DNA of 64,000 nt from Sphingobacteriales bacterium. Lineage in GTDB: Bacteria > Bacteroidota > Bacteroidia > Sphingobacteriales > Sphingobacteriaceae. Position 1 is the stretch's first letter, and each line of letters starts with the position of its first letter. Under the pieces are notes generated by a model. The model did no database searches. It saw nothing but the letters and a program-made list of their open reading frames with translations, and was not told where the DNA came from. The position numbers and the translations under genes are program-made. The stretch spans positions 186,001 to 250,000 of the forward strand of contig JANXOD010000008.1 in assembly GCA_025353765.1 (NCBI GenBank). The letters are read 5' to 3'. Positions 32,283-43,078 of the stretch are shown piece after piece.

Positions 32283-32450
32283 GCACCTATCTTTATAAAC
32301 GCTAAGAGGAGTTTTGCCTCCGCCATCGATAGCTTTCCCTGTGCCAGAAAAAATTGTCTTAGCGCCATCGGTACTTTTCCCTTCGCCAAAGGGAATTATC
32401 TCAGAGTCAACGGGGATTTTACCTCCGCCAGCACTAGTTTTACCCATTAA
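32283..32450. repeat. Degenerate tandem repeat with 21-bp period (array A)
   Basis: Eight consecutive 21-base units fit without gaps. Six of the boundaries show GCC or a close form at the unit end, for example units ending TTGCCTCCGCC, CCCTGTGCC, TCTTAGCGCC, CCCTTCGCC and TACCTCCGCC, with a TTTT core in mid-unit. Read on the minus strand it gives a heptapeptide repeat (GGGKIPV, GEGKSTD, GTGKAID, GGGKTPL). The last unit includes the stop and final codons of the downstream-strand SDR gene. There are no spacers, so it is not a CRISPR array. Function unknown. Confidence 0.75.
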
Positions 32451-38540: not shown

Positions 38541-40283
38541 ATGATAACAAAACAAATCACAACAAAGATTCTGGGAATGGGACTTTTGTTAACTCTATTA
38601 GCATTCTTTAATGGATGTAAGGAGGATAAATTATCTTTAAATACACCAATTGTAAGGCCTAGCGTAAATTTTATTGGTCTAACAAATTTTACATCAACAG
38701 TTCCAAGTCAGTTAATCAGGTACAATTCAAGCAATGCTAATTTGTTAGTTGGTTCGGCATTGGCTATTACTGGCTTACAGAGTGGTGAAAGTATTGTTGC
38801 TATTGATTATCGTCCAGCAACCGGTCAATTATATGGTTTGGGAAGTACCTATCGCTTATATATAATTCCTGTACCGGCCAGTATTACAGCCAGTAGTGTA
38901 AAAGCCATAGCAGTTAAGTCTACACCTTTTATTGCACCACCTGCTGGAGCAACAGCAGCAGGTTTTGATTTTAACCCAGTAACAGATCGTATTCGTATCG
39001 TTACATCTAATGGTAAAAATTATGATGTAAATCCTGAAACTGGAGATCTTGGTAATGCTAGTGCCGATATTAATGGTATAACAGGTGCTCTTTTAACCGG
39101 ATCTGCTTATACAAACAACGTATTAGGTGCAACATCAACTTTGCTGTATGGTTTAGATGTAGCTAATAAAAAACTATATAAACAAGATGAGATCTTAGGT
39201 ACGATAACAGAAGTTGGTTCCTTAGGATTATCATCTCAATTAGATATTGGCAATCCTAGTTTTTCTGCAGCTTATAATACAAATATAACCAATGCAAGAC
39301 TTAATGCAGGTGGCGGATTAGACATTTCACCTAGTGGTGTAGCCTTGGCTGTTTTAATGAATAACTCAGCTCCGGCAATTCCTATAGATGGAATAGCTGT
39401 TGGAAATCCCAAAAGCAGCGCTAGCGCAGTTACAGGTACTCCAACACTTTATCAAATTAATTTAGAAACTGGTAAAGCAATTGATTTAGGCGTTCTCCCA
39501 ATACCGGCAGCATCTGGTGTTTTAGGTGGAACAGCTATTATTGGTATTGCTATTCCTACCAGTCCTATAGCTTATGCGGTTGATGAAACTAATGAATTAT
39601 TAGCTTTTAATCCTAATAAGCCAGCTACTATAGTAACAAAACCTGTAACAGGGTTAGGAGCAGGAGAAAATCTTTTAGCTATTGATTTCCGTCAGACAAC
39701 CGGACAATTATATGGTTTAGGAAGTTCAAGTAGATTATATACCATAAATACGATAACAGGCGTAGCAACACAAGTAAATACACTCCCTTTCACAACTCTA
39801 CTCTCAGGTATTTATTTCGGTTTTGCTTTTAACCCTACTACAGACTTAGTCAGAATAGTTGGTAATACAGATCAGCCTAATAATGTAGGGCAGGATATAA
39901 TAGTAAAACCAGCACTAGTGGCTACAACTACCGTTGCCCCAGAAATAGTTGATGTTACTGGAATTGCTCATGGTAATGCAGTCGTTCCTCCTGCAGTGGC
40001 TTCTACTCTTAATTTATACGGCGTAAACTTTAAAACCGATAAACTGGTTAGAATGGATCTAGCTGCTCCTGCTTTAACTGCTACCGTTGTTGGTTCTTTA
40101 GGAATTGATGTTGAAGCTCAAATGGGTTTTGATATTGGCACTACTTCTAATACAGCTTACGGAATTTTTAAGGTGGGTACAGGTTATAAAATTTATACAA
40201 TCAATTTACTGTCTGGTACAGCTACTGCTGTTGCTGACTTTCCTACCCCAATACATAGTATGACCCTTGGTTTAGGTTTTTAA
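38541..40283 (+). CDS. Lipoprotein with duplicated DUF4394 domain
   Basis: A 580-aa predicted lipoprotein; the lipobox is LLAFFNGC with Cys26. The body consists of two similar DUF4394-like halves: the segment SGESIVAIDYRPATGQLYGL (near 80) recurs as AGENLLAIDFRQTTGQLYGL (near 375), each followed by a FNP-TD-(I/V)RIV motif. The repeated blade-like pattern suggests a beta-propeller. Function unknown. It follows the Oar-like receptor closely and shares its orientation, and the pair is closed by the terminator at 40305-40339, so I infer one operon. Confidence 0.85.
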   Translation: MITKQITTKILGMGLLLTLLAFFNGCKEDKLSLNTPIVRPSVNFIGLTNFTSTVPSQLIRYNSSNANLLVGSALAITGLQSGESIVAIDYRPATGQLYGLGSTYRLYIIPVPASITASSVKAIAVKSTPFIAPPAGATAAGFDFNPVTDRIRIVTSNGKNYDVNPETGDLGNASADINGITGALLTGSAYTNNVLGATSTLLYGLDVANKKLYKQDEILGTITEVGSLGLSSQLDIGNPSFSAAYNTNITNARLNAGGGLDISPSGVALAVLMNNSAPAIPIDGIAVGNPKSSASAVTGTPTLYQINLETGKAIDLGVLPIPAASGVLGGTAIIGIAIPTSPIAYAVDETNELLAFNPNKPATIVTKPVTGLGAGENLLAIDFRQTTGQLYGLGSSSRLYTINTITGVATQVNTLPFTTLLSGIYFGFAFNPTTDLVRIVGNTDQPNNVGQDIIVKPALVATTTVAPEIVDVTGIAHGNAVVPPAVASTLNLYGVNFKTDKLVRMDLAAPALTATVVGSLGIDVEAQMGFDIGTTSNTAYGIFKVGTGYKIYTINLLSGTATAVADFPTPIHSMTLGLGF

Positions 40284-40304: not shown

Positions 40305-40339
40305 AAATCCGTTCTGCCAAAAGCAGAGCGGATTTTTTT
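40305..40339 (+). terminator. Terminator after the TonB receptor/DUF4394 unit
   Basis: A 13-bp stem (AAATCCGTTCTGC with GCAGAGCGGATTT, one G-T pair) and loop CAAAA, followed by a run of T. It begins 22 bp after the DUF4394 stop. Confidence 0.9.
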
Positions 40340-40443
40340 ATTTGGGGTAAGAGGCCATGCTGAATACAATGAGGCATCTCTAACTTAGAACTATGACTCT
40401 TTGTTTAACTTATATTCATTTACAGTTTAATACTGTAAACCAG

Positions 40444-40737
40444 TTTTTATACCCTTATTAACGGTTTTGTTAATATACATAGAGGCGATGTAAGCATATT
40501 TAAACGTTTTGCTAATATACATAGAGGCTTTGTAAGCATATTTAGTCGTTTTGTTAATATATATAGATGCTTTGTAAGCATATTTAGTCGTTTTGTCAAT
40601 ATACATAGAGGCTTTGTAAATAAGCAAAATCATTTCCCTAACACATAAAATCATTTTCAAGACAAAGAGAAAGACTAACTAAATAAGATTTACCATTCCC
40701 TTGACAAGGAAAATTGTTTTCTCAACAAGGAAAGAGC
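40444..40737. repeat. Tandem repeat with 21-bp period (array B)
   Basis: Fourteen consecutive 21-base units fit without gaps. The best-preserved block (40465-40632) alternates a unit starting TTTTGTTAATATACATAG with one starting CTTTGTAAGCATATTTAG, giving a 42-bp super-period repeated almost exactly; outer units (to 40737) are degenerate but keep the TTTTC/CCTT..AAGG spacing. On the minus strand it reads as heptapeptides such as YKASMYI and NKTTKYA, but the frame has no credible start or homology. There are no spacers, so not CRISPR. Confidence 0.85.
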
Positions 40738-40864
40738 TGAGATGATAGAGACAAACATCTTCTATACGAATAAGTATAGGAGTAATATTTTAATACCTAA
40801 ACTATCCAATTATTAAATTCATCGCTATATTAGCAGCCTAAATTCAAACCAAATAATTTGTAAT

Positions 40865-43078
40865 ATGAAAAAGAATAGATTGGTAGCTGTTTGGCTACTT
40901 GCTCTTATTTTATTTGTTGGCAGCATTGCTAAAGCAGATGAAGGGATGTGGCTTCCAATGCTTATCGGAAAGAACTACGAACAAATGAAAAAGCAGGGTT
41001 TTAAATTAACCCCCGAAGATTTGTACAGTGTGAATAAAGCCAGTATTAAAGATGCTATCGTTTCTTTTGGCGGTTTTTGTACCGGCGAAATTGTATCTAA
41101 AAACGGTTTAATCTTTACCAATCACCATTGTGGATATGATGCAGCAGCTTCAAACTCCACACCAGAAAACAATATTCTGGATAATGGTTTTTATGCAAAG
41201 TCTTATGCTGAAGAAAAACCTATTCCAGGTTTATTTGTGCGTTTTTTAGTACGTATGCAAGATGTTACTCCGCAGGTAATGGCTGGATTAAATGGAGTAG
41301 CTGATAAAGATAAAGCGGCAAAGGTTGCAGAGATCAGCAAGCAGATCAGTGCAGATATAACCAAAGGCACTACACAAGAAGCAGAAGTAAAAGATATTTA
41401 TAAAGCCAATCAATACCTTCTTTTTATTTATGAGCGCTTTACAGATATTCGTTTAGTAGGTATTCCGCCGCAATCTATTGGTAAATTTGGCGGTGATACA
41501 GATAATTGGGAATGGCCTCGTCATACCGGTGATTTTTCAATCTTTCGCGTTTACGCTGGTGCGGATAATAAAGCAGCAACTTATGCAGCTACCAATAAGC
41601 CTTATACTCCTAAAAAATTCCTTCCGGTTTCTATAAAAAGTATAAAGAATGGTGATTTCTCTATGGTTTATGGTTTCCCGGGCCGTACAGATCGTTTTTT
41701 AACTTCTTACGGTGTACAATTAGCTACTGAAAAAACAAATCCTACTATTGTTAAACTGCGGGATATTCGTTTAAAAGCATGGAAAGAAGAAATGAATAAA
41801 AGTGTGAGTACACGTTTAAAACTGTCTTCTCAATATGCTAATATTGCTAATTACTGGAAATATTATATCGGCCAAACTGAACAATTAAAAAGATTGAAAA
41901 TATACGATGAAAAGCAACAGCAAGAGTCTGCTTTTACAGCTTGGGCGGCTTCTAATCCGGTAAATGCAGGTTTAATGCAAGAATATAAAAAAGCCTATGC
42001 TGTTTATGAACCTTATGCCGTTCATGTAACTTATATTAATGAAGGTCTTTTAGCTTCGGCATGGATTAGAAATGCTTTTCAATTGGGCAGTACACTAAAA
42101 ATGATGCAGGATAAGAAAGATGATGTTGCTTATTTAAAGCAAACAAATCAGAACCTGAATAATATGGTGACTAAATACAAGGATACTTATAATGAACTAG
42201 CAGATAAGAAGATCTTCGCAAAGATTTTAACTTCTTTTTATGCGGATGTTCCTAAATCACAGCATCCTAAGTTTATCACTTCAATTATTACCGATCATTG
42301 GAAAGGCTCCCCTGAAGCTACTTTCCAGAATTATGCGGATTCGTTATGGTCTAACAGTGTATTGATTAATCCGGATAAGCTTAGTAAATTTTTAAGTAAT
42401 CCAAGTCAGGAAGCTTTAGAGAATGATCCTGGTTATAAATATGCTGCTAATTTGAATCCTCCAGAATATGTGAAAGCTAATTTTGGAACTACTATTTCAG
42501 ATTTTCAGGCTGCAAAAGCCCGTTTAGATAATTTATATCTTAAAGCTTTGCTTGAAAAAAACAAGGGAATGATCATGTATCCTGATGCAAATTCTACGAT
42601 GCGTATCAGTTATGGTCAAATTCAGAATTATAGTCCTAAAGATGGGATAACTTATAATATTCAAACCACTATTGATGGCATGGTTTCTAAATATCAGCCG
42701 GGAGATGGCGAATTTGATTTACCAAAATCGTTATTAACTGCGTATGCCAAACGTGATTTTAGAGAGTATGGTGAAAACGGAACTTTGCCTGTAGGATTTA
42801 TATCTAGTAATGACATCACAGGTGGTAATTCTGGTTCTCCGGTTATAAATGCCAATGGAGAATTAATAGGTTTGGCATTTGACGGAAATTGGGAAGCCAT
42901 GAGTGGTGATATTGCTTTTGATAAAAAGTATAAACGAACCATTTCTGTTGATGCACGCTTTGTTTTATGGTGCATTGATGTTTTAGGTGGTGCTCATAAT
43001 ATCATTAATGAGTTAGATATTCGCAGAGATGCTCCAATGGTTAAGAAGCCTGTTAGGGCAGCATCTAAAATGAAGTAG
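40865..43078 (+). CDS. S46-family dipeptidyl-peptidase (DPP7-like)
   Basis: A 737-aa exported serine peptidase with signal peptide (1-24, ending AKA). The chymotrypsin-like core carries the catalytic His in TNHHCGYDA (85-93) and the catalytic Ser in TGGNSGSP; FGGDTDNWEWPRHTGDFS holds the N-terminal-binding and Asp residues. Family knowledge: the residue 18 after the catalytic Ser (673 in Porphyromonas enzymes) is Gly in DPP7 and Arg in DPP11. Here the segment reads LAFDGNWE, so Gly, implying preference for hydrophobic rather than acidic P1 residues. Its job is periplasmic release of dipeptides. Confidence 0.95.
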   Translation: MKKNRLVAVWLLALILFVGSIAKADEGMWLPMLIGKNYEQMKKQGFKLTPEDLYSVNKASIKDAIVSFGGFCTGEIVSKNGLIFTNHHCGYDAAASNSTPENNILDNGFYAKSYAEEKPIPGLFVRFLVRMQDVTPQVMAGLNGVADKDKAAKVAEISKQISADITKGTTQEAEVKDIYKANQYLLFIYERFTDIRLVGIPPQSIGKFGGDTDNWEWPRHTGDFSIFRVYAGADNKAATYAATNKPYTPKKFLPVSIKSIKNGDFSMVYGFPGRTDRFLTSYGVQLATEKTNPTIVKLRDIRLKAWKEEMNKSVSTRLKLSSQYANIANYWKYYIGQTEQLKRLKIYDEKQQQESAFTAWAASNPVNAGLMQEYKKAYAVYEPYAVHVTYINEGLLASAWIRNAFQLGSTLKMMQDKKDDVAYLKQTNQNLNNMVTKYKDTYNELADKKIFAKILTSFYADVPKSQHPKFITSIITDHWKGSPEATFQNYADSLWSNSVLINPDKLSKFLSNPSQEALENDPGYKYAANLNPPEYVKANFGTTISDFQAAKARLDNLYLKALLEKNKGMIMYPDANSTMRISYGQIQNYSPKDGITYNIQTTIDGMVSKYQPGDGEFDLPKSLLTAYAKRDFREYGENGTLPVGFISSNDITGGNSGSPVINANGELIGLAFDGNWEAMSGDIAFDKKYKRTISVDARFVLWCIDVLGGAHNIINELDIRRDAPMVKKPVRAASKMK

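What the first reader, a model, noticed from the sequence alone, without database searches (positions are those of the whole stretch)
40444..40737. Intergenic array with strict 21-bp period (array B)
Fourteen contiguous 21-base units fit with no insertion. The central eight alternate two unit types, so the better-conserved period is 42 bp. Twenty-one base pairs is two turns of B-DNA, so repeated A/T tracts would lie on one helix face (curved DNA or an ordered protein-binding array). Twenty-one is also a multiple of three, so either strand reads heptapeptide repeats. It sits between a terminator and the S46 peptidase promoter.
Basis: seen in the sequence. Interest (0 to 1): 0.62.

Follow-up and report, generated by a model that had tools for sequence, protein, structure and literature searches.

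The report
Dispersed 21-bp phased intergenic repeat arrays
The spot is a real non-coding tandem repeat whose units are exactly two DNA-helix turns long, and it is one of at least fourteen such arrays scattered between genes of this one bacterium, mostly with different sequences but the same 21-base step, which suggests that the spacing matters more than the letters.

Summary
The array is real: core 40464-40622, two alternating 21-mers (lag-42 identity 0.89, lag-21 0.61; 0/2000 shuffles). The 21-bp register continues weakly to ~40737; the leftmost claimed unit is unsupported. The array is not unique. On its 588-kb contig (a Daejeonella-related Sphingobacteriaceae) I found 14 intergenic arrays with period 21 or 42 and ~8-10 different unit sequences. 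Such primitive 21-bp arrays are rare in 2.6 Mb of relatives. Four arrays (this one included) share a junction, and three a clear composite anatomy: type-I units, junction, type-II units. In the fourth the units have drifted almost to background similarity while the 21-bp register stayed. Arrays are non-coding (stops in all six frames in several; no 3-bp rhythm), this one shows no RNA structure, and orthologous gene pairs checked in relatives lack them. Column conservation inside units has a 10.5-bp rhythm across the set, but not in this array. Phased A-tracts, curvature and heptapeptide coding are not supported. Best reading: a lineage-specific dispersed minisatellite element whose two-turn register is kept by a helical constraint, most likely sites bound on one helix face by an unidentified protein; neutral slippage is the main rival. 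New variant of a known kind (cf. Porphyromonas BrickBuilt).

The parts
40464..40622 (-). Array B core: 7.5 x 21 bp, two alternating unit types (42-bp higher-order repeat), type-II units
   Evidence: homologous to C6:129988-130201
40615..40637 (-). Junction GGAAATGATTTTGCTTATTTACA between type-I and type-II units, shared with arrays L121b, L121a and L129 (1, 2 and 4 mismatches; other hits have at least 5)
40638..40737 (-). Degenerate type-I units (about five), weakly in 21-bp register; related to arrays L198 and L121b
40443..40463 (.).
   Evidence: 11/21 matches to the next unit, no independent support
32299..32445 (.). Array A: 7 x 21 bp, different unit, between convergent genes, reaching over the stop codon of an SDR gene
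38541..40283 (+). DUF4394 gene; together with array B it separates TonB receptor and S46 genes that are ~125 bp apart in relatives
40305..40335 (+). Terminator-like hairpin after the DUF4394 gene
40759..40782 (+). Weak terminator-like hairpin between array and S46 promoter
40826..40833 (+). TATATTAG, in the region of the conserved TATATTTG box upstream of S46 in relatives (promoter, inferred)
40865..43078 (+). Peptidase S46 gene
   Evidence: PF10459 E 5e-216
40427..40660 (-). 77-aa ORF over the array; judged an incidental open frame

Best explanation
Array B is one copy of a lineage-specific family of non-coding intergenic minisatellite elements. The ancestral form of this subfamily was composite: type-I units, a junction, then type-II units, all on a 21-bp register. 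Copies reached several intergenic regions and then changed by point mutation and by duplication of one-, two- or three-unit blocks (21, 42, 63 bp). Shown: the family, the shared junction in four loci and composite order in three, the absence from orthologous gene pairs checked, the near absence of indels. Inferred: the register is kept because units are contacted on one face of the helix every two turns, most likely by an oligomerising DNA-binding protein that tolerates varied sequence; the array would then act as a local nucleoprotein or boundary element between transcription units. The protein and the effect on S46 expression are unknown.
For: 14 intergenic arrays of period 21/42 on one 588-kb contig, including the window. 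Primitive 21-bp segments: 11 in 0.59 Mb here, 3 in 1.19 Mb of congeneric DNA, 1 in 0.66 Mb of other genera, 0 in 0.73 Mb around S46 loci of other Bacteroidota. TRF, which allows gaps, reports 0-1% indels in nearly all of them (L195 5%), although units differ by 20-50%. Shared junction in B, L121a, L121b and L129. L121a and L129 lie upstream of paralogous genes, and their units now match barely above background while both keep 21 bp. Column conservation has a 10.5-bp component (z 4.2 for all, 5.7 one per family; p 0.001-0.02 against a null matched for neighbour correlation) and no 3-bp component. Empty sites: TonB-S46 spacing ~125 bp in relatives; GNAT-aspartokinase spacing ~20 bp in G018 against 308 bp here. 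More family-I copies on contigs C13 and C20.
Against: Most unit families share no motif, so a single sequence-specific protein is hard to imagine. Array B itself lacks the 10.5-bp conservation signal (power 0.8). No array was found at an orthologous site, so there is no sign of long-term selection. No candidate protein: one HU gene as in relatives. A detector based on fixed lag favours indel-free arrays, and block duplication alone keeps units equal in length.
Confidence: 0.45

Rival explanations
1. Neutral minisatellites: tandem duplication by slippage or unequal recombination, spread by copying or gene conversion between intergenic regions, with no function. The common 21-bp step reflects common descent of all arrays plus block-wise turnover.
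For: Species-specific, absent at orthologous sites; higher-order 42- and 63-bp periods typical of unit duplication; units of related arrays can diverge to background while keeping the period; arrays stop at gene ends and tend to leave more room at 5' than at 3' ends.
Against: Type-I and type-II units and their alternating forms diverged by about 40% with almost no indels; conservation inside units follows the helix period; L123 has a 42-bp unit without a 21-bp subrepeat, which common descent from a 21-mer does not explain.
Confidence: 0.38
2. Intrinsically curved DNA: phased A/T tracts bend the region and so influence the S46 promoter or nucleoid folding.
For: Predicted net bend exceeds column-permuted controls in A, L195 and L201 (p 0.02-0.05).
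Against: Array B is ordinary (p 0.26). A-tract coherence at 10.5 bp is at the level of permuted arrays over the 14 profiles (Fisher p 0.83). The wedge parameters were taken from memory.
Confidence: 0.06
3. Coding array: a short protein of heptapeptide repeats (77-aa minus-strand ORF).
For: An open minus-strand frame; 21 is a multiple of three, so open frames are expected anyway.
Against: Stops in all six frames in the B tail, L197a and L201; no consistent frame or synonymous excess between arrays; no 3-bp component in conservation; no Pfam hit; no homologous DNA in relatives.
Confidence: 0.04
4. A miniature transposable element with internal tandem repeats, moved by a transposase in trans, like BrickBuilt.
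For: Dispersed intergenic copies with a shared composite order and junction.
Against: No shared flanking leader, tail or terminal inverted repeat among 14 array profiles; only one marginal Y1 transposase hit in the genome. Other transposases and target duplications were not checked.
Confidence: 0.1

Closest known systems
BrickBuilt and PgRS/464 elements of Porphyromonas gingivalis (PMC4596501)
   Same: Bacteroidota; intergenic, dispersed (19 copies), tandem units of about two helix turns (23 nt; 41 nt in PgRS), conserved and variable columns within the unit, species-restricted
   Different: All BrickBuilt copies share one unit sequence and many keep a leader, tail and IS5-like terminal repeats. 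Here units are 21 bp, sequences differ between arrays, and no terminal repeats were found.
Heptanucleotide (7-bp) intergenic satellites, found here in relatives G018, G012 and G026
   Same: Intergenic tandem arrays, also giving a lag of 21
   Different: They repeat at 14 and 28 bp as well and often carry more indels; the arrays studied here have no strong signal at 7 or 14 bp.
Iterons of plasmid and phage origins (from general knowledge)
   Same: Direct repeats of about 20-22 bp phased on the helix and bound by a protein
   Different: Iterons share one sequence beside a rep gene and origin; these are at least 14 chromosomal loci with different sequences.

Membership tests
Bacterial intergenic minisatellite / VNTR | Tandem non-coding units above ~10 bp between genes | tested here: met
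Bacterial intergenic minisatellite / VNTR | Copy number differs between strains | not testable with these tools
   one genome per species is held
BrickBuilt MITE | 23-nt unit | tested here: not met
   unit is 21 bp; the BrickBuilt sequence itself was not compared
BrickBuilt MITE | Shared leader and tail with terminal inverted repeats | tested here: not met
   flank-to-flank comparison of the arrays, no common flank
BrickBuilt MITE | Multiple intergenic copies in one genome | tested here: met
Curved-DNA element with phased A-tracts | A/T tracts in phase at 10.5 bp beyond chance | tested here: not met
Heptad-repeat protein gene | Codon-like (3-bp) pattern of variation between units | tested here: not met
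Structured RNA / known Rfam family | Fold better than shuffles or Rfam hit above gathering score | tested here: not met
   (array B only)
Phased protein-binding array | Conservation on one helix face (10.5-bp rhythm) | tested here: inconclusive
   present in the family as a whole, absent in array B
Phased protein-binding array | A protein bound to the units | not testable with these tools
   needs ChIP or pull-down

The most novel reading that the evidence does not exclude
A new class of chromosomal nucleoprotein platform in which the helical spacing, not the sequence, is the inherited property: arrays of unrelated 21-bp units, dispersed between transcription units of one species and all bound on one face by a spacing-reading protein.
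Probability: 0.15. Interest if true: 0.75.

Novelty: new variant of a known kind. Interest (0 to 1): 0.5.

Why it matters
Bacterial tandem repeats are usually classed by unit sequence. Here the period is common to many arrays while the sequence is not, so it asks whether a helical spacing can be inherited and selected by itself. The many arrays in one small genome make this directly testable with half-turn insertions and ChIP.

Tried and rejected
Coding heptapeptides. RNA structure and Rfam (SAM-III at 20 bits against a cut-off of 45 is chance). A-tract phasing and curvature. Origin from 7-bp satellites. Seeding of arrays from the adjoining gene ends: similarity largely stops at the array edge. 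Common flanks or terminal repeats. RAYT/REP origin: only one marginal Y1 transposase. Extra HU proteins: none. Homologues on plasmids or phages: none. Homologous DNA in 59 relatives: none. Literature searches found only the P. gingivalis elements as a close parallel.

Full report
Observation. The core of the array (40464-40622) is a clear tandem repeat of two alternating 21-mers. Identity is 0.89 at lag 42 and 0.61 at lag 21, no shuffle of 2000 reaches either, and TRF finds no indel. To the right the register continues weakly to about 40737 (lag-21 identity 0.51; 1/2000 at that lag, 19/2000 when all lags are allowed). The leftmost claimed unit is not supported. The array lies 181 bp after a DUF4394 gene, behind a terminator-like hairpin, and before the S46 peptidase gene.

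Where it is. The S46 neighbour has its best named relative in Daejeonella sp. (80%), so the genome belongs to that genus or close to it (Sphingobacteriaceae). The contig (C6, 588 kb) was read in stretches and scanned for periodicity.

A family of arrays. Besides array B I found array A (window 32299-32445) and twelve others on C6 with period 21 or 42: L121 10.0 kb and 19.2 kb, L123 (42 only), L125, L129, L130 (weak, four units), L134, L195, L197 (two), L198 and L201. A 43-bp array (L124) and a probably coding 21-bp repeat (L133) are separate. All fourteen are intergenic. Primitive 21-bp segments number 11 in 0.59 Mb here, against 3 in 1.19 Mb of congeneric DNA, 1 in 0.66 Mb of other genera of the family and 0 in 0.73 Mb around S46 loci of other Bacteroidota. 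In relatives G018 and G012 most lag-21 signals come from 7-bp satellites. Further copies of one family are on contigs C13 and C20, so the family is not confined to C6.

Relations between arrays. By unit profile there are related pairs: L121b-L198 (and the tail of B), B-L121a, L130-L197b, and more weakly A-L195; the rest show little or no similarity. Array B shares with L121b, L121a and L129 a junction, GGAAATGATTTTGCTTATTTACA, with 0, 1, 2 and 4 mismatches while background hits start at 5. In B, L121a and L121b it separates type-I from type-II units in the same order; in L129 type-I remains are slight. L121a and L129 lie upstream of paralogous genes with a conserved 72-bp upstream stretch (90%), yet their units match at 0.55, close to the permuted level of 0.50. 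So at least in this subfamily the sequence drifted and the 21-bp step stayed.

Lineage restriction. The array has no homologous DNA in 59 relatives, and two other arrays none in the genus. In 13 genomes of the genus the TonB receptor and S46 genes lie about 125 bp apart; here a DUF4394 gene and the array are between them. The GNAT and aspartokinase genes are about 20 bp apart in G018 and 308 bp here, with 250 bp of array.

Coding and RNA tests. A 21-bp unit leaves some frame open by arithmetic. The B tail, L197a and L201 have stops in all six frames, and in the open frames the synonymous fraction is not consistently raised. The conservation profile of the 21 columns has no 3-bp component. The 77-aa ORF has no Pfam hit. 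Neither strand of B folds better than shuffles, and Rfam gives nothing near its cut-offs.

Helical tests. Across arrays the conservation profile has a component at 10.5 bp: z 4.2 for all fourteen profiles and 5.7 for one per family; p between 0.001 and 0.02 when the null keeps neighbour correlation. The signal is strong in A, L125, L129, L195 and L201 and absent in B. The fourteen profiles count B and its tail separately and leave out L123. The choice of family representatives was mine, and ten frequencies were looked at. Phased A-tracts are not found (Fisher p 0.83), and predicted bend is ordinary for B (p 0.26) and only mildly raised in a few arrays (wedge values from memory). Indels are 0-1% by a gapped method in nearly all arrays (L195 5%).

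Interpretation. What it is: a dispersed, lineage-specific, non-coding minisatellite family with a strict two-turn step (about 0.85 sure). Why the step is kept: I favour contact on one helix face by a protein (about 0.45), with neutral turnover from common ancestry close behind (0.38). The first needs a protein that tolerates different sequences, and none was identified. The second must explain the near lack of indels at 20-50% unit divergence and the 10.5-bp rhythm of conservation. Caveats: my lag detector prefers indel-free arrays; array families are not fully independent; about three quarters of the genome was not scanned; only one strain is held.

Comparison. The nearest published parallel is BrickBuilt of P. 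gingivalis: 23-nt intergenic tandem units, 19 copies, conserved and variable half-units, leader and tail with IS5-like ends, and bidirectional promoter activity (PMC4596501). The present family occurs in a similar setting but fails the tests for unit length and common ends, so it is not filed there. It is a new variant of the bacterial intergenic minisatellite.

Noticed in passing
L124:4856-5138 (C6:184856-185138): 43-bp tandem array, 6.5 copies, 93% matches, with internal palindrome TTCCAAAGTTGGAA, between convergent genes.
   Followed up: no
L133:4755-4973: Small gene (72 aa) ending in five ADSTKM-type heptapeptide repeats: a probably coding 21-bp array, useful as contrast.
   Followed up: partly
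L121:19427-19475: Two type-II units in inverted orientation form a near-perfect hairpin (TTGCTAATTTACATAG...CTATGTAAATTAGCAA) at the end of a type-I array.
   Followed up: partly
L121:10446-11057 and L129:12218-12829: Paralogous 203-aa genes, both preceded by a 21-bp array and a conserved 72-bp upstream stretch.
   Followed up: partly
L138, L139, L254, L176, L184: Relatives G018, G012 and G026 carry 7-bp intergenic satellites instead of 21-bp arrays.
   Followed up: partly
window 38541-40283: DUF4394 gene lies between TonB receptor and S46 genes that are neighbours in 13 relatives.
   Followed up: partly
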